From: Mogibacterium sp. | GTDB taxonomy: Bacteria > Bacillota > Clostridia > Peptostreptococcales > Anaerovoracaceae | Assembly: GCA_017434025.1 (NCBI GenBank) | Contig: JAFRGC010000016.1 | Location: forward strand, 1 to 64,000 | Direction: 5' to 3' | DNA: 64,000 nucleotides | Shown here: one piece after another, positions 14,125-19,229 of the stretch | Position numbering within the stretch: position 1 is the stretch's first letter | Layout of the letters: every line of letters starts with the position of its first letter | Translations under genes and position numbers: made by a program | Notes under the pieces: model-generated | Told to the model about the DNA's origin: nothing | The model's input: the letters and a program-made list of their open reading frames with translations, nothing else | Database searches by the model: none

Positions 14125-14163
14125 TCAATAAAAGAAAGTCTGCCGCAAAACACGACAGACCTT
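14125..14163 (-). terminator. rho-independent terminator
   Basis: An 11-pair stem (14135-14145 with 14153-14163; two mismatched or G-T pairs) is followed on the minus strand by TTCTTTTATTG. It lies 16 bases after the stop of the LVIVD protein gene and closes that operon. Confidence 0.75.
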
Positions 14164-14179
14164 CTGATTCCTATAATTA

Positions 14180-15571
14180 TTAATCTTCGTATGTCTTGCG
14201 GAGGATGTAGAATCCATCGCTGTTAGCGTCAATGATGATATTGCCTCTGTCATCGACTACTACGTCCTCTGTCATTGCCATCATCGGTCCAGGGAACGGG
14301 AAGCACTTCTTCGTAGGATTTGGAGGAATGAAGTATGCCTTTTCCTTGATATAGAAAGGATCAGATACGTCATACACTCTGAGTCCTGCAGCAAAGTAAC
14401 AATCATAGACCACATCTGTTCTCTGCTCGAGCCATGGCTTGTTGCTCATCGGTTCATGAACATTGTGAGGTCCGAACGGTCCGCCCTTAGAACCTTCCGC
14501 CAGGCAGTAAACATTGAAGTTCGGTGCCGGGAAGCCTTCCGGTACTTCCGGATACGGGAATTCAGCGATCAGCACAGGGTTAGTCGGATCGCTTACATCG
14601 ACCATGTGCAGGTTGTTCATTGCCTGAGCCTGCTTGACTACTCCGTCTTTGATGAAGCCGAATCTCTCACCTTCATTCGTTACTACGACCAGATCTCTTC
14701 CGACAAGCGGAAGTGCAGTATGTGTTCTTGCGCCGGCAAGTCTGCTGGAGAATGCAGGCATGAACTTCAGGTTGCCGAGTGCCTTAGGATGCTTGATGTC
14801 AGAGATATCGAGAACATACAGACCGTCACCGCAGTAACCGCAGTATACCTTGTCACCTACTACGAACGGAGGGCCGTGCAGCCAGCCTTTGTCCATGAAG
14901 TCAGGATTGTGAGGAGCTGAGTGATCCACTTCTCTTCCCGGTACTCCGTAGATGTACTGGTGAGGAGCCCACCAGCGTCCGACTTCAACAGGATTCGTCG
15001 GATCAGCGATACTGACGATCCTGTAGATCAGTCCTTCGAATTCATCAGCTTCCGATGACAGATGTACATAATCTCCGCCATTATACATGAATCTGTGTAC
15101 ACCCATCGAATAAGGAACTCCGCAGTCCCAATATCCGAGATACTCAGGATTCTCAGGATCATTCTTCAGATCATAGATCATGATGCCCTGCAGGCTCTTC
15201 ATCTTATCCCTGTCACCGACAAGAACAGACGGGCCGGATCCCGATGTAAGAGCGAATATCAGTTTGTCATCTGCGATCTGAAGCTTAGGAATCGATGTAG
15301 TTGGATATTCGTCGATATCGAATGGACGCCACTTCTTGATAAACACAGGGTTTCTCGGATCTGTGACATCACTGATCATGATGCCGACGCCATCCGGTCC
15401 CGCTGCAAAGCATGCGCCATAGAGCAGATATCTGCCTGCCTCAGTGCGGTAAAGTCCCATCTGGAACATGCCGCATGTGCCGTCCATGTCGCAATACGAA
15501 AGGACTTCCAGGTTCTTGATGTAACCGTCGTTGCCCTCGCCTTTCGAATAGAAATATTTGCCTTTGCCCAT
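14180..15571 (-). CDS. LVIVD-repeat beta-propeller protein
   Basis: The 463-residue protein has six recognisable LVIVD-type blades built on a D-V/I-S/T-D-P core followed by a W/F-ended strand: ISDVTDPRNP, IYDLKNDPENP, IVSIADPTNP, VLDISDIKHP, MVDVSDPTNP and VYDVSDPFYI. A six-bladed propeller is likely. No signal peptide is visible, unlike many surface LVIVD proteins. His and Cys residues are frequent between blades (HSAPHNP, CGYCGDG, FGPHNVHEP), so cofactor or metal binding is possible. AGGAG precedes the ATG. It is translated 15 bases after the EthD-like gene and is probably co-transcribed with it. Confidence 0.75.
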   Translation of the reverse strand: MGKGKYFYSKGEGNDGYIKNLEVLSYCDMDGTCGMFQMGLYRTEAGRYLLYGACFAAGPDGVGIMISDVTDPRNPVFIKKWRPFDIDEYPTTSIPKLQIADDKLIFALTSGSGPSVLVGDRDKMKSLQGIMIYDLKNDPENPEYLGYWDCGVPYSMGVHRFMYNGGDYVHLSSEADEFEGLIYRIVSIADPTNPVEVGRWWAPHQYIYGVPGREVDHSAPHNPDFMDKGWLHGPPFVVGDKVYCGYCGDGLYVLDISDIKHPKALGNLKFMPAFSSRLAGARTHTALPLVGRDLVVVTNEGERFGFIKDGVVKQAQAMNNLHMVDVSDPTNPVLIAEFPYPEVPEGFPAPNFNVYCLAEGSKGGPFGPHNVHEPMSNKPWLEQRTDVVYDCYFAAGLRVYDVSDPFYIKEKAYFIPPNPTKKCFPFPGPMMAMTEDVVVDDRGNIIIDANSDGFYILRKTYED

Positions 15572-15586
15572 ATTGGTCTCCTGTTC

Positions 15587-16462
15587 TTATCTCATCGTGA
15601 TATATCCACGATACTGTGTGAGATTGTCTGATCTTGCGTAATCTGAGAGGAAGATACCGCTGATTCCATAAGACTTCTTGAGATACGGGAAATCTTCTGT
15701 CTCTGCCCATGCAGGCTTAGCGCACTTCTTAGCTGCTGCTGCAGCCGCATCGCACCATGCCGACTGGCACTCGAACCACATCTCTACGATACGGTCGAAG
15801 TCACAGTTGTTGACTTCCTTCTTGATCTTGCTGGATACGCAGCGTGTGCATCCATCATGAGAAGTCCATGCAGGGATGAATTCTTCTTTGAGCCACTTAT
15901 CGCCTTCTTCAGCGCTGACGCCTTCCGGATACTTGACCATGAACATCCATCTGTAGTTAGGTCCGTCTTCTACTGTACGGCCTTCACCCTTGAAGTCTTC
16001 TTCCCACCATACAGGTACAAATGCGAAGATGAAAGGAACTGTTCCTGCAGCTTCATCACCCTTGGTTGCTCTCGCATCGTCACCTTCAAGATTGATCTCT
16101 TCGGCCTTATCGATGCCATGAGAATGACCCATATCAGGGATATTGTTCTGCCAAACGAGTACATCAGTCGGGAAATACTCAGTCAGAACCTTGTGGTGAT
16201 CTTTCGCAAATCCGATATCATTAGGATTTGCAAGCCAGTAATGCTCGGTCATCTGCATTCTTACGGTTCCGAATCTTGCTCCGCCCGGAGGAGTCGGGAG
16301 TGCAGGATAGAATGCATACTTGCTTACATAAGGTCCGAACTGTGAGATGCTGTCTGGAACATGATATCTGTACAGCCAGTTCTCAAGCTTGATTCTGTAA
16401 TCCTCATGTGCGAGGTCTACAAGAATGATACTTCTTACCGGATAGAAATCAGGTCTGTTCAT
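15587..16462 (-). CDS. duplicated dimeric alpha/beta-barrel (EthD-like) protein
   Basis: This 291-residue protein appears to hold two ferredoxin-like dimeric alpha/beta-barrel modules. The first is at about 10-140 (SIILVDLAHED, ENWLYRYHVPD). The second is at about 155-285 (FMVKYPEGVSAEEGDKWLKEEFIPAWT). That layout resembles EthD and monooxygenase-like barrels, which degrade or carry aromatic or haem-like ligands in other organisms. The second half carries a CTRC pair and an Ala-rich helix. Family placement rests on pattern only. A strong AAAGGAG precedes the start, and the LVIVD gene follows directly. Confidence 0.55.
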   Translation of the reverse strand: MNRPDFYPVRSIILVDLAHEDYRIKLENWLYRYHVPDSISQFGPYVSKYAFYPALPTPPGGARFGTVRMQMTEHYWLANPNDIGFAKDHHKVLTEYFPTDVLVWQNNIPDMGHSHGIDKAEEINLEGDDARATKGDEAAGTVPFIFAFVPVWWEEDFKGEGRTVEDGPNYRWMFMVKYPEGVSAEEGDKWLKEEFIPAWTSHDGCTRCVSSKIKKEVNNCDFDRIVEMWFECQSAWCDAAAAAAKKCAKPAWAETEDFPYLKKSYGISGIFLSDYARSDNLTQYRGYITMR

Positions 16463-16510
16463 TGAGTTATTCTCCTTTCATTATCAAGGATCTTCAGGAT
16501 CCTGTCTGAT

Positions 16511-16548
16511 GGTATAAAAGCAGGCAGGGAAATATTATCCCCTGCCTG
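16511..16548 (-). terminator. intercistronic terminator/attenuator
   Basis: A 9-bp stem CAGGCAGGG/CCCTGCCTG with a 10-base AT-rich loop is followed by CTTTTATA on the minus strand. It separates the flavoprotein gene from the EthD-like gene and would lower expression of the downstream pair or end a separate transcript. Confidence 0.8.
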
Positions 16549-16565
16549 TCTCTATCAGTTAAATA

Positions 16566-17543
16566 TTATTTCTCCTTGGATGGGGATGGTGTAGGAGCGA
16601 TCACGTTTGTATAGTGCTCTTTCCTTGCCTTGAACTCAGGATCCTTGAAGAGGTTCATGAGTCTTCCTTCATTCTGGAAGATATCCTGGCCGTGAGCAGC
16701 TTTGCCCGACAGAATATCGTGTGCATGCCATTCTGTAGCAGGATCGAACTTGAATACCATAGCTCCATCCTCAACTACCAGCTCACCACGGAGTCCGCAG
16801 AGTTCGCACTCAGCAGTAGTTGTTCCCGGGAAGATGTAGAAAGCATTGCCGTGGCAGTGTGGGCATGCGCCCTTCTTGCCCTTCCAGAGATCTACGTTCT
16901 CAGAACCAGGGATCATCAGATGATTGTCAATGATGTACTGAGCTGCCTCTACGAGGTTGCGAGCCATCTCTTTGGTTCTCTCGATCTTGTCTTCCTGCAT
17001 GATAACGTCTTTGCACCATGAGAAATAGTCATTGTCGATGACTTTCCAGCCAGGGCTCATTGCGAGCATAGCGTGATCTGTCTCTGTTCTTACTGCCCAG
17101 TCAGATCCGCCGATAGCGAGGAAGGAGATCGCCTTCTGCATGAAGTATCTCTCATTCAGAGGCTCCTTACCCATCTCTTTGAGCTTCTCATTGAGCCCGA
17201 GGAGCATTCCTGTATCATGTCCAGGTCCCATTCTGTCGCAAACAATGTGGAAGAGTCCGGATCCGCCGGATTCATAGATAGGGTCAACGATGAATACGCC
17301 GTCAGCCTCTACCATCTTCTCATACAGAGCCTTATAATCATCTTTTCTTGTGCAGATCATACCCTTGCCCATTACGAGTCCTCTTGAGCATGCTACGCAG
17401 CCTGTGCATGTCTGGAGATCCCAGTCAAATGCATGGATGAATTCGATCTCTGCACCGAGTCTCTGGCACTCTTCAAGTGCTACTCTGCACATGGTGTCAT
17501 TGTTTCCGTTCTTAGTTCCGAAAGAAATTCCCAGAATCTTCAT
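16566..17543 (-). CDS. flavodoxin-fold NAD(P)H-dependent FMN reductase/iron-sulfur flavoprotein with a C-terminal zinc ribbon
   Basis: The N-terminal 200 residues match the NADPH-dependent FMN reductase fold: ILGISFGTKNGNNDTM phosphate loop, then FIVDPIYESGGSG. Cys46, Cys49, Cys52 and Cys64 form a C-x2-C-x2-C-x11-C array like the compact [4Fe-4S] site of Isf-type flavoproteins. An extra C-terminal domain contains two CxxC knuckles (CPHC 227-230, CELC 246-249), a zinc ribbon not usual in the family. It is probably cytosolic and performs electron transfer or substrate reduction; the substrate is unknown. GGAGGAAATATT precedes the ATG. A long-spaced dyad lies upstream. Confidence 0.75.
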   Translation of the reverse strand: MKILGISFGTKNGNNDTMCRVALEECQRLGAEIEFIHAFDWDLQTCTGCVACSRGLVMGKGMICTRKDDYKALYEKMVEADGVFIVDPIYESGGSGLFHIVCDRMGPGHDTGMLLGLNEKLKEMGKEPLNERYFMQKAISFLAIGGSDWAVRTETDHAMLAMSPGWKVIDNDYFSWCKDVIMQEDKIERTKEMARNLVEAAQYIIDNHLMIPGSENVDLWKGKKGACPHCHGNAFYIFPGTTTAECELCGLRGELVVEDGAMVFKFDPATEWHAHDILSGKAAHGQDIFQNEGRLMNLFKDPEFKARKEHYTNVIAPTPSPSKEK

Positions 17544-17591
17544 AATAATATTTCCTCCTACATAGTCTACAAAATTATGGCTTCTGATTCA

Positions 17592-17624
17592 GTGCCATCT
17601 TTTTATATTTTATCAATCTGGCAC
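17592..17624 (-). promoter_or_regulatory. long-spaced inverted repeat upstream of the flavoprotein gene
   Basis: Perfect half-sites GTGCCA (17592-17597) and TGGCAC (17619-17624) flank a 21-base AT-rich spacer that holds TTGATA and TATAAA-like elements. It lies 49-81 bases before the flavoprotein start. It may be an operator for the nearby LysR protein, though the spacing is longer than a classical T-N11-A box. Confidence 0.4.
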
Positions 17625-17682
17625 GGATGTTGTGAGAATAACATGTGAAAATTAGTAATATTTAACCTCGAATTACAGTCGT

Positions 17683-18171
17683 TTACTGATGATCCGGATA
17701 CTGTGCAGGCTCATTGCAGATAGCTCTTGACCATTTGTCAGCAACGTTGTTCCAGAAGAACGCAATGATCAGAGTCGGTATATAGCAAGGAATGAATCCC
17801 TTGAGTACAGCTGCGATATATGGTCCGAAGCTGAATGCGCCGCCGGCAATCATGCCTACCGCTGTCATGATAAGGTCGAGTATGACACAGAACACAGCAG
17901 CAACAACAACATTCAGAAGGATACCGAACTTAAGTGTTCCCGGCTGAGAGTGCTTAGCTGCGAATGCAAATCCCCATCTTTCTGCATGAAGGAAGTTTAC
18001 GAAGAATGTTACTACATATGCGAGGATCGCCATTCTGATATAATTAGGTCCGTTCAGGCTGCCCGGCGCATCGATATTTGAGAGCGCGAGAGCTACCAAT
18101 GTGATTACAAGGCTCAGTGGCAGGTCCATGATCAGCGCATATACTGCTGTAAGTTTATTGCTCTTCTGCAT
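17683..18171 (-). CDS. four-helix integral membrane protein (DUF2798-like)
   Basis: The 162-residue protein has four predicted membrane helices in two hairpin-like pairs (AVYALIMDLPLSLVITLVALA; MAILAYVVTFFVNFL; FGILLNVVVAAVFCVILDLIM; GFIPCYIPTLIIAFFW). The layout resembles DUF2798 membrane proteins of unknown role. The start at 18171 is supported by AAAGGGG 8 bases upstream; the much longer upstream ORF extends into a terminator hairpin. It lies between the LysR gene and the flavoprotein, and is a candidate partner or transporter for this cluster. Confidence 0.65.
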   Translation of the reverse strand: MQKSNKLTAVYALIMDLPLSLVITLVALALSNIDAPGSLNGPNYIRMAILAYVVTFFVNFLHAERWGFAFAAKHSQPGTLKFGILLNVVVAAVFCVILDLIMTAVGMIAGGAFSFGPYIAAVLKGFIPCYIPTLIIAFFWNNVADKWSRAICNEPAQYPDHQ

Positions 18172-18210
18172 TGTTGAATCCCCTTTCAATATCAACTGAT
18201 TATTATTGTT

Positions 18211-18256
18211 AAAAAAGAAACAAGTTATCTTGTCTATATGATAATCAAGATAACTT
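18211..18256 (-). terminator. rho-independent terminator after the LysR gene
   Basis: The perfect stem AAGTTATCTTG/CAAGATAACTT has a 13-base loop and runs into GTTTCTTTTTT on the minus strand. It would stop read-through from the alaS-ireB-ruvX-lysR transcript into the four-helix protein gene, unless regulated. Confidence 0.85.
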
Positions 18257-18326
18257 ATTTTGTATAATTGTTTAATTTGATATAGATACATAACAGTATA
18301 GTTATGAACCAGTAATATCAACGGGT

Positions 18327-19229
18327 TCAGCGTACTTTGCTGTTTTCCTGATTCTGAATGATATCCTTGAGTATCTCTTCCATAAACAACACTTGCTCCG
18401 TTGTCTTAGTCTTGAGTCTCGCGGTAGCTACGATATCCCTCGCGTTGAACCTCAACCATTTCAAGTCAGCCGCGTCTTTGGCCCATACCCAGTCATCTAC
18501 GATCGCTACACCCATGTTGTTGCGTACACATGTGATCAGCGATTCGTGGTTCTTGACAAATCTCAACTCAGGAATGAATCCATAAGGTCTTGTATATGAA
18601 GCGATAGCGTCTATGATCAGTTTGTCGACGATCTCCCACGGAGCTATAAATATGTCACGGCTGAAGTCTTTGAGGGTTAAATCATTTCTGTCTGCAAGAC
18701 GATGATCCGCTGAATACAGCAGGATCTTCCCGATCTCTGCAACATCATATGACTGGAATTCAAAGTAGTTCTGAACGGAGTTCTTCATGGTCACCGCAAT
18801 ATCCAGAGAGTCTGTAAGCAGTGATGATGTCAGTTCCTTGATGCCGCAGCAGTTGATGACGACCTCTGACTGTGGATATTCGTCATGAAAACGCTTCATC
18901 ATCTCAGGTATTATATTGAAGAGATCCCATCCTTCAAGGAACCCTACCCGGATCGTTCCCTTGGTCTTTCCCAGGATCTGAGCAGCCTCTATCTTAGTAT
19001 TGATCAGATCTGCCTTGTATCTGCTGAACAGATCGAAATACAGTTTGCCCACTTCAGTGAGCTCGGTTCTCTGATTATTGCGCTTGAACAGCTTGCAGTC
19101 CAGCTCCTTCTCAAGAAGCGATATCTGCCTGGAAACAGCAGGCTGAGAAACGTACAATTCTTCAGATGTTTTCGTAAAGCTGAGATTGGTAGCTACAGCC
19201 ATGAAATAATCTATCATCAAATCGTTCAT
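18327..19229 (-). CDS. LysR-family transcriptional regulator
   Basis: The 300-residue protein has an N-terminal winged HTH (about 1-60, with SFTKTSEELYVSQPAVSRQISLLE written here in part as SQPAVSRQISLLE) and a periplasmic-binding-like effector domain from about 90 (GTIRVGFLEGW). Length is standard for the family. It starts 3 bases after the ruvX stop, so it is probably expressed from the housekeeping alaS-ireB-ruvX transcript. A strong terminator then separates it from the genes it likely controls (four-helix protein, flavoprotein, EthD-like and LVIVD genes). The target assignment is inference from position. Confidence 0.88.
   Translation of the reverse strand: MNDLMIDYFMAVATNLSFTKTSEELYVSQPAVSRQISLLEKELDCKLFKRNNQRTELTEVGKLYFDLFSRYKADLINTKIEAAQILGKTKGTIRVGFLEGWDLFNIIPEMMKRFHDEYPQSEVVINCCGIKELTSSLLTDSLDIAVTMKNSVQNYFEFQSYDVAEIGKILLYSADHRLADRNDLTLKDFSRDIFIAPWEIVDKLIIDAIASYTRPYGFIPELRFVKNHESLITCVRNNMGVAIVDDWVWAKDAADLKWLRFNARDIVATARLKTKTTEQVLFMEEILKDIIQNQENSKVR

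What the first reader, a model, noticed from the sequence alone, without database searches (positions are those of the whole stretch)
14180..19229. Uncharacterised redox cluster: LysR, four-helix membrane protein, zinc-ribbon flavoprotein, double EthD-like barrel and LVIVD propeller
Five adjacent co-directional genes share no described pathway in my knowledge, yet the parts look complementary. They are a reductase-type flavoprotein with a four-Cys motif, a duplicated ligand-degrading/binding barrel, a six-blade propeller, a membrane protein and a regulator. Two internal terminators and a long-spaced dyad suggest separate tuning of the parts. A reductive catabolic or detoxification module for a small aromatic or heterocyclic compound is a testable guess. 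Gene identities are read from motifs; the joint function is inference.
Basis: partly seen in the sequence, partly recalled or inferred. Interest (0 to 1): 0.8.

Follow-up and report, generated by a model that had tools for sequence, protein, structure and literature searches.

The report
Flavonoid-degradation cluster with unassigned propeller protein
Five neighbouring genes, in a bacterium whose closest relatives come from ruminant guts, look like an oxygen-free pathway for breaking down plant flavonols such as quercetin, and the unstudied propeller protein among them is a testable candidate for the one enzyme of that pathway still described as unknown.

Summary
The five genes are there (minus strand, 19229-14180), but two identities change the story. 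The "EthD-like barrel" is a bacterial chalcone isomerase (CHI) and the "zinc-ribbon flavoprotein" a flavone reductase (FLR): consecutive enzymes of gut flavonoid breakdown (flavonol to flavanonol, then to the auronol alphitonin). A 2025 paper calls the alphitonin-cleaving enzyme unknown (PMC12203004). The LVIVD propeller is a good candidate. In 280 genomes of the Eubacterium ramulus family, close LVIVD relatives and CHI occur in the same 8 genomes, in 7 of them on different contigs; phloretin hydrolase and FLR occur without them. In two other lineages LVIVD lies in one gene run with FLR, CHI, a 2-oxoacid:ferredoxin oxidoreductase, a phosphotransacylase and a butyrate-type kinase, which could turn the predicted arylpyruvate into arylacetate plus ATP. 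LVIVD shows seven repeats and four conserved histidines in one register, suggesting a metal site. A flavonoid pathway is well supported; the exact reaction is inference: nothing was assayed and structure prediction was off. Exceptions exist: G189 has CHI without LVIVD; G008, G023 and (weakly) G480 have LVIVD without detected CHI.

The parts
18327..19229 (-). LysR-type regulator; starts 3 nt after the stop of a RuvX/YqgF-like gene (named by eye)
   Evidence: Pfam HTH_1 E 6.2e-19 and LysR_substrate E 1.2e-15; coordinates
18172..18326 (-). 155-nt gap between LysR and membrane gene, probable promoter region of the four-gene unit (inference)
   Evidence: one 9-of-12 promoter-like match at 18266-18238; such matches are as many as in shuffles (14 against 13.6)
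18222..18256 (-). dyad AAGTTATCTTG - 13 nt - CAAGATAACTT, possible operator
   Evidence: not found in the same form in 21 relatives
17683..18171 (-). small membrane protein (about four helices by eye), no Pfam family
   Evidence: relatives in the same place in 24 of 49 loci
16566..17543 (-). flavone reductase (FLR) relative: FMN flavoprotein with Cys-containing C-terminal tail
   Evidence: PDB 7d38 E 3.4e-76 over residues 1-318; FMN_red E 2e-14; residues needed for FLR activity kept
16521..16548 (-). terminator-like hairpin between FLR and CHI
15587..16462 (-). bacterial chalcone isomerase (CHI)
   Evidence: PF18232 E 6.8e-49; PDB 4d06/3zph E about 1e-91 over residues 6-291; catalytic His and Asp present
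14180..15571 (-). LVIVD-repeat propeller protein, seven repeats, four conserved His; candidate auronol (alphitonin) C-C hydrolase
   Evidence: PF08309 E 3.8e-9; conservation; co-occurrence with CHI; gene runs
14133..14165 (-). terminator-like hairpin ending the cluster

Best explanation
The cluster is an anaerobic flavonoid (most likely flavonol) degradation module. FLR reduces the C2-C3 double bond of a flavonol (quercetin to taxifolin). CHI converts the flavanonol to the ring-contracted auronol (alphitonin). The LVIVD propeller then hydrolyses the ring-opened alpha-diketone form of the auronol between the phloroglucinol ring and the adjacent carbonyl, giving phloroglucinol plus an arylpyruvate (3,4-dihydroxyphenylpyruvate), probably at a metal held by four histidines near the propeller axis. 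The arylpyruvate is then oxidatively decarboxylated to arylacetyl-CoA by a 2-oxoacid:ferredoxin oxidoreductase and turned into 3,4-dihydroxyphenylacetate plus ATP by a phosphotransacylase and a butyrate-type kinase; such genes lie in the same gene run in other lineages and, in general form, elsewhere in this genome. LysR probably regulates the unit in response to a flavonoid. Shown here: family identities, conserved linkage, co-occurrence of LVIVD with CHI, gene-run partners in relatives. From print: the FLR and CHI reactions of characterised relatives, and that the alphitonin-cleaving enzyme is unknown. Inferred: that LVIVD is that enzyme, its mechanism, the arylpyruvate intermediate, the regulator's ligand.
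For: (1) FLR and CHI identities with active-site residues kept; print reports apigenin conversion by 11 putative FLRs tested besides that of F. plautii (PMC7862272 passages). (2) Profile: of 391 genomes of the class, 4 have a strong LVIVD hit and all 4 have CHI; 5 have a strong CHI (Fisher p 5e-9, or 4e-7 without the window's genome). Of 280 genomes of the E. ramulus family, 8 have close LVIVD relatives and the same 8 have CHI (p 1e-15, or 4e-9 after taking out 4 genomes known beforehand). 25 of 27 LVIVD-bearing genomes or records tested have CHI. (3) Specificity: of the same 280, 13 have a strong Phy hit, 6 of them without LVIVD and CHI, two of which (G482, G637) have FLR; G684 has LVIVD and CHI but no Phy. 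No PF18089 hit in the window's genome, G001-G007, G015, G147, G327, G381, so something else should do the C-C cleavage there. (4) Gene runs: L036 and L105 hold FLR, CHI, LVIVD, 2-oxoacid oxidoreductase subunits, a phosphate-butyryltransferase-like and a butyrate-kinase-like gene together; L101 has them in one neighbourhood; L018 (LVIVD 90% identical to the window's) and L110 have LVIVD beside the oxidoreductase; L112 and L114 have CHI beside the kinase. (5) E. ramulus, described in print as degrading quercetin via taxifolin and alphitonin (PMC11170127 passage), has LVIVD and CHI. (6) Print calls the alphitonin-cleaving enzyme unknown (PMC12203004 passages) and offers dihydroxyphenylpyruvate as a hypothetical product (PMC11170127 passage). 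(7) His159, 232, 284 and 369 fall in one register of repeats 3-6 and are kept in 26, 27, 27 and 27 of 27 aligned rows, the window included.
Against: No assay and no structure (prediction switched off). LVIVD without detected CHI: G008, G023, and G480 with a weaker LVIVD hit. CHI without LVIVD: G189, and G252 with a weak CHI. The four histidines are mostly kept in three proteobacterial relatives (32-35% identical) whose annotated neighbours include no CHI, so they do not point to this substrate. The oxidoreductase, phosphotransacylase and kinase are not in the window's cluster; an indolepyruvate oxidoreductase and butyrate kinases elsewhere in the genome are weak evidence. Another unassigned gene (X231, weak CbiA/P-loop match) also travels with the oxidoreductase-bearing runs. 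Catenibacillus decagia converts alphitonin to 3,4-dihydroxyphenylacetate, yet its abstract lists FLR, Fcr and Phy and no CHI (PMC11170127 passages); I could not test it for LVIVD. Several genomes, the window's own among them (84% complete), are incomplete, so absences are soft. Fisher values ignore kinship.
Confidence: 0.6

Rival explanations
1. LVIVD acts in the flavanone branch: it hydrolyses the chalcone that CHI makes from a flavanone (to phloroglucinol plus a cinnamate), or does another chalcone-level step, rather than cleaving the auronol.
For: CHI also opens flavanones (PMC9694015 passages); co-occurrence with CHI fits this equally well.
Against: The 2-oxoacid oxidoreductase, phosphotransacylase and kinase in the runs of L036, L101 and L105 are not needed for a cinnamate or arylpropionate; print says Fcr turns naringenin into phloretin without CHI (PMC8398226 passage).
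Confidence: 0.15
2. LVIVD is not the hydrolase but an accessory of the pathway: a flavonoid-binding, sensing, metal-supplying or electron-transfer protein.
For: Many propellers are binding proteins (recalled); the only solved relatives by sequence are weak matches, 5hrm/5ioj; FLR cannot use NAD(P)H directly and its electron chain is unknown (PMC7862272 passage).
Against: The described route needs a C-C-cleaving enzyme after CHI. The other unassigned genes of these clusters are small membrane proteins and X231; X231 was found in only one (L018) of the 28 clusters like the window's. Four conserved His in one register look metal-binding.
Confidence: 0.15
3. Alphitonin is cleaved by a PhlG/Phy-type hydrolase, and LVIVD does something else.
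For: Two CHI clusters without LVIVD (L104, L108) carry a 206/225-aa distant PhlG-like protein in the CHI neighbourhood; many LVIVD-bearing genomes also have Phy: 7 of 8 and 11 of 29 examined besides weak hits and the LVIVD-less G189 and G252.
Against: No PF18089 hit in the window's genome, G001-G007, G015, G147, G327, G381 and G684, all with CHI and LVIVD. The nearest relatives of the 206-aa protein are in the LVIVD-less genomes; 48% relatives occur in four LVIVD-bearing ones, and short hits near 30-50 bits in others, the window's genome included.
Confidence: 0.1

Closest known systems
Flavone reductase FLR of Flavonifractor plautii (PMC7862272; PDB 7d38, equated by recall and by agreeing residue numbers)
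   Same: Full-length match (E 3.4e-76), FMN_red domain plus C-terminal tail; Gly106, Trp149, His271, Ile275 kept in the alignment
   Different: Met10, Ser14 and Lys92, which contact FMN, are Thr, Asn and Ser; activity untested; here in a run with CHI and LVIVD
Chalcone isomerase of Eubacterium ramulus (PDB 3zph, 4d06; PMC9694015)
   Same: Full-length match (E about 1e-91); His33, Asp36 and His73 kept (window His34, Asp37, His74)
   Different: About five residues longer in the lid stretch by the alignment; activity untested
Quercetin route of E. ramulus and C. decagia via taxifolin and alphitonin to 3,4-dihydroxyphenylacetate (PMC11170127)
   Same: Same FLR and CHI chemistry expected; E. ramulus carries the LVIVD protein
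   Different: In E. ramulus LVIVD is not beside CHI; in the window the three genes are contiguous; the cleaving enzyme is not named in the passages I saw
Phloretin hydrolase / PhlG (PF18089)
   Same: Proposed to work alike: hydrolytic C-C cleavage of an acylphloroglucinol
   Different: No sequence relation: LVIVD has no PF18089 match
Haloalkylphosphorus hydrolase (PDB 5hrm), a metal-dependent propeller (metal and fold recalled)
   Same: Weak match to several repeats (summed profile E 1.5e-4); would be a propeller hydrolase
   Different: Best single stretch E 3.4; other substrate class; relation unproven

Membership tests
Flavone reductase (FLR) | FMN-reductase-type domain plus the extra C-terminal tail; full-length similarity to 7d38 | tested here: met
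   residues 1-318 align to 1-305, E 3.4e-76
Flavone reductase (FLR) | Residues whose mutation strongly lowers activity (G106, W149, H271, I275) | tested here: met
   read off the alignment against section 9 of PMC7862272
Flavone reductase (FLR) | Reduction of flavones or flavonols | not testable with these tools
   no assay
Bacterial chalcone isomerase | Chalcone_N domain PF18232 and full-length similarity to solved CHI | tested here: met
Bacterial chalcone isomerase | Catalytic His33 with Asp36 | tested here: met
   window His34 and Asp37 in the alignment and residue list; mechanism from passages of PMC9694015
   only Chalcone_N matches at E up to 1
LVIVD repeat family (PF08309) | Score over Pfam's cut-off | tested here: met
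   36.2 bits against 20.2 for the whole protein; the genome scan with the same family reported no match at E 0.001
PhlG/Phy hydrolases (PF18089) | Sequence match of LVIVD to PF18089 | tested here: not met
   no match at E up to 1
Auronol (alphitonin) hydrolase, proposed | Cleavage of alphitonin to phloroglucinol and an arylpyruvate | not testable with these tools
   genomic evidence only
Metal-dependent propeller hydrolases (5hrm type) | Homology and shared metal ligands | tested here: inconclusive
   summed profile E 1.5e-4, best stretch E 3.4; no structure
LysR-type regulators | HTH_1 and LysR_substrate domains | tested here: met

The most novel reading that the evidence does not exclude
The LVIVD protein founds a new class of metal-dependent beta-propeller C-C hydrolases, and with FLR, CHI and the oxidoreductase-phosphotransacylase-kinase set it makes a self-contained, redox-neutral, ATP-yielding fermentation of flavonols: quercetin + 2 H2O + ADP + Pi to phloroglucinol + 3,4-dihydroxyphenylacetate + CO2 + ATP (water of ATP formation left out), with reduced ferredoxin from arylpyruvate oxidation feeding FLR, whose electron donor is unknown.
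Probability: 0.3. Interest if true: 0.85.

Novelty: new variant of a known kind. Interest (0 to 1): 0.7.

Why it matters
Flavonols such as quercetin are among the most abundant dietary flavonoids, and 3,4-dihydroxyphenylacetate and 4-methylcatechol are their products in rumen fluid (PMC8780962 passages). The enzyme that splits the auronol intermediate is called unknown (PMC12203004). This work names one conserved protein that can be expressed and tested, gives a genetic marker (CHI with LVIVD, no need of Phy) for flavonol degraders in gut and rumen metagenomes, and suggests how the route could conserve energy and supply FLR with electrons.

Tried and rejected
Rejected: EthD identity. Rejected: a chance or single-clade arrangement, since linkage or co-occurrence holds in several families. 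Weakened: that LVIVD merely marks flavonoid degraders in general; Phy and FLR occur without it. Rejected: strict replacement of LVIVD by the PhlG-like 206-aa protein; 48% relatives co-occur with LVIVD in G016, G020, G021, G022. Led nowhere: conservation of the dyad in 21 relatives; quercetin transcriptomes of E. ramulus; annotated neighbours of three proteobacterial LVIVD relatives out of 103 plasmid records with a match; neighbours of LVIVD in E. ramulus, E. oxidoreducens and L043, which apart from a LysR gene in E. ramulus are housekeeping-type or unrelated genes. One search (PF08309 in the own genome) gave no match although hmmscan of the protein did; one search was not used. The oxygen-free cleavage enzyme Fcr was not searched for. 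Literature, seen as listings with some passages: searches showed me no paper that links an LVIVD protein to flavonoids or names an alphitonin-cleaving enzyme. 'LVIVD repeat' occurs in 5 papers of the library, none of them on flavonoids by title or abstract; no listed paper held LVIVD with the other two terms, but papers holding it with one of them could be hidden among 3,953. The library lacks most subscription journals; the CHI ring-contraction paper PMC5055601 is not held. That known flavonoid genes are similarly organised in F. plautii, E. ramulus and C. scatologenes is already noted in print (PMC10470551 passage).
Full report
What is there. The LysR gene begins 3 nt after a RuvX/YqgF-like gene (named by eye), so it may be read with upstream housekeeping genes; a 155-nt gap follows, then membrane gene, FLR, CHI and LVIVD. 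Hairpins with T-rich tails lie between FLR and CHI (16548-16521) and behind LVIVD (14165-14133). A perfect 11-bp dyad with a 13-nt spacer lies in the gap (18256-18222). It was not found in the same form in 21 relatives; 11 of these show other dyads of 9 or more matched pairs, some of which look like terminators.

Identities. The 'barrel' is a bacterial chalcone isomerase: PF18232 E 6.8e-49, PDB chalcone isomerase entries at E about 1e-91 over residues 6-291, with the His33/Asp36 pair described for the E. ramulus enzyme (PMC9694015, passages) at window His34/Asp37. The flavoprotein matches PDB 7d38 over its length, E 3.4e-76. The entry is labelled only 'Cd1' there; that it is the F. plautii FLR of PMC7862272 is recalled, and its residues agree with the paper's numbering. 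The residues whose mutation strongly lowers FLR activity (G106, W149, H271, I275; section 9) are kept in the alignment; Met10, Ser14 and Lys92, which contact FMN, are Thr, Asn and Ser. LVIVD passes PF08309 and shows no signal peptide by eye.

Linkage. Of 49 loci with an LVIVD relative found (L002-L028 and L038; LVIVD 86-99% identical, titled Mogibacterium sp. or uncultured Clostridia/Clostridiales) have FLR, CHI and LVIVD in this order on one strand, 22 of them also LysR and the membrane gene in front. In three of the 28 a DUF1097-type gene stands between CHI and LVIVD (L010, L015, L021). L048 is cut by its contig. Of the other 20, only L036 has FLR and CHI near LVIVD. Outside that set, the C. 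difficile plasmid locus L001 and the unnamed L107 have LysR (divergent), LVIVD, FLR, DUF1097 and CHI. FLR and CHI lie within about 6 kb of each other in 27 of the 34 CHI-bearing genomes among the 42 given; two of the 27 rest on a weak or partial FLR hit (G022, G024) and one on a weak CHI (G252) (my count).

Co-occurrence. In 391 genomes drawn from the class, strong LVIVD hits (E below 1e-90) are in 4 (G000, G147, G327, G381) and all 4 have CHI; CHI is strong in these and in G189, weak in G252. Five further genomes have only short LVIVD hits at E 4e-5 to 9e-4, which I did not count. In 280 genomes of the E. ramulus family, 8 (G011, G017, G025, G026, G465, G632, G643, G684) have LVIVD at E below 1e-150 and the same 8 have CHI; G480 has a weaker LVIVD hit (E 2.3e-35) and no CHI. 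In 7 of the 8 the close LVIVD gene and CHI lie on different contigs; in G684 they are less than 2 kb apart. Fisher p is 5e-9 and 1e-15 (1e-14 if G480 counts as positive), or 4e-9 for the family after taking out four genomes already known to have LVIVD; these values ignore kinship. From the other side, 25 of 27 LVIVD-bearing genomes or records (26 of the 49 loci plus L001 were given) have CHI; G008 and G023 do not.

Specificity. PF18089 (Phy/PhlG) matches 20 of the same 280 genomes at E 0.001; 13 matches are over 100 bits, and I counted only these: 7 of the 8 LVIVD/CHI genomes and 6 with neither (p 5e-10). Two of these six, G482 and G637, have strong FLR hits (FLR was sought in 42 chosen genomes, not in all 280). 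They resemble C. butyricum, which has FLR, Fcr and Phy candidates and left the flavonols tested untouched (PMC11868195, parts 1-3 of 7 read). G684 has LVIVD and CHI without Phy, and no PF18089 hit was found in the window's genome, G001-G007, G015, G147, G327 or G381. So LVIVD goes with CHI more closely than with Phy or FLR, and in these genomes, unless incompleteness hides it, something other than Phy must split the acylphloroglucinol.

Gene-run partners. In L105 one run holds a 2-oxoacid:ferredoxin oxidoreductase (alpha subunit over the cut-off of a VorB-type model; beta- and gamma-like subunits; a small ferredoxin-like protein by eye), a phosphate-butyryltransferase-like protein (under the cut-off), a butyrate kinase (over it), LVIVD, FLR, a DUF1097-like protein, CHI and an MFS relative. 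L036 has the same enzymes, with a membrane protein of no Pfam family in place of DUF1097. L101 has alpha and beta subunits, the transferase, the kinase, DUF1097, FLR, CHI and LVIVD in one neighbourhood. L018, a relative of the window, has the oxidoreductase behind LVIVD; L110 has it beside LVIVD on the other strand; L112 has FLR, transferase, kinase and CHI; L114 has oxidoreductase, kinase and CHI. These are enzymes that could turn an arylpyruvate into an arylacetate with ATP. Print offers the same intermediate as hypothetical for alphitonin cleavage (PMC11170127, passages) and calls the cleaving enzyme unknown (PMC12203004, passages). The C, H and O balance of quercetin + 2 H2O to phloroglucinol + 3,4-dihydroxyphenylacetate + CO2 closes without outside electrons (my arithmetic). 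In the window's own genome an indolepyruvate oxidoreductase and four butyrate-kinase matches over the cut-off lie on other contigs; these families are also over their cut-offs in 2 and 4 of 14 control genomes, so this only permits the route.

The slot without LVIVD. G189 has FLR, CHI, an indolepyruvate oxidoreductase (over its cut-off), a transferase and a kinase (L104) but no LVIVD; in that neighbourhood lies a 206-aa protein with a weak PF18089 match, and G252 (L108) has its 78% relative beside a weaker CHI. Perhaps the C-C hydrolase slot can be filled by a PhlG-like protein. It is not strict replacement: 48% relatives occur in four LVIVD-bearing genomes.

The LVIVD protein. Seven repeats can be laid in register by eye; His159, 232, 284 and 369 fall at the same place of repeats 3 to 6, and repeat 7 has Glu435 there. 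Of 27 aligned rows (the window and 26 chosen relatives) 26, 27, 27, 27 and 24 keep them, and all 27 keep Glu300. In a propeller such residues would face the central channel (inference). The tree puts the window with the Mogibacterium-like rows; the CHI-linked L101 row (45% identical) groups with paralogues that are not beside CHI, so orthology is less clear outside the main clade. The only solved relatives by sequence are the chains 5hrm/5ioj, with weak, scattered matches.

Ecology. Rumen fluid degraded almost 90% of quercetin in 5 h with 3,4-dihydroxyphenylacetate and 4-methylcatechol as major products, as cited in PMC8780962 (passages), so ruminant-gut bacteria with this cluster are plausible agents; that is inference.

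Verdict. Belonging to flavonoid degradation: about 0.93. LVIVD as the auronol-cleaving hydrolase: about 0.6. The rivals are a chalcone-level reaction, an accessory role, or a PhlG/Phy-type enzyme doing the cleavage.

Noticed in passing
L001:7834-13033 (C. difficile plasmid NZ_CP149720.1) and L107: LysR, LVIVD, FLR, DUF1097 and CHI lie in one cluster on a plasmid, so the module can be plasmid-borne.
   Followed up: partly
L104:7847-8467 and L108:10302-10979: A 206/225-aa distant PhlG/Phy-like protein in the CHI neighbourhood of two genomes without LVIVD; a possible alternative C-C hydrolase.
   Followed up: partly
window 18222-18256: Perfect 11-bp dyad with 13-nt spacer between LysR and the membrane gene; not found in that form in 21 relatives.
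   Followed up: yes
L105:16642-17376, L036:4618-5313, L018:11413-12114, L101:3487-4179, L114:7828-8505: A protein of about 225-245 aa (weak CbiA/P-loop match in two of them) travels with the oxidoreductase subunits in these runs; role unknown.
   Followed up: no
window 17683-18171; L001:11635-12147; L105:8996-9505: Small membrane proteins (no family in the window, DUF1097 elsewhere) recur in these clusters; transport of flavonoids or phenolic acids is a guess.
   Followed up: no
E. ramulus genome G017, contigs C30 and C79: Two separate FLR-CHI pairs (FLR 73% and 42% identical to the window's), perhaps for different flavonoid classes.
   Followed up: no
L101:5283-7151, L104:5925-7778: PrpR/PrdR-like sigma-54 activators with PAS domains lie in two of the CHI neighbourhoods, besides LysR genes.
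   Followed up: no
L115, L116, L117: LVIVD relatives (32-35%) with most of the same histidines lie on plasmids of Rahnella, Caballeronia and Sinorhizobium, with no CHI annotated nearby.
   Followed up: partly
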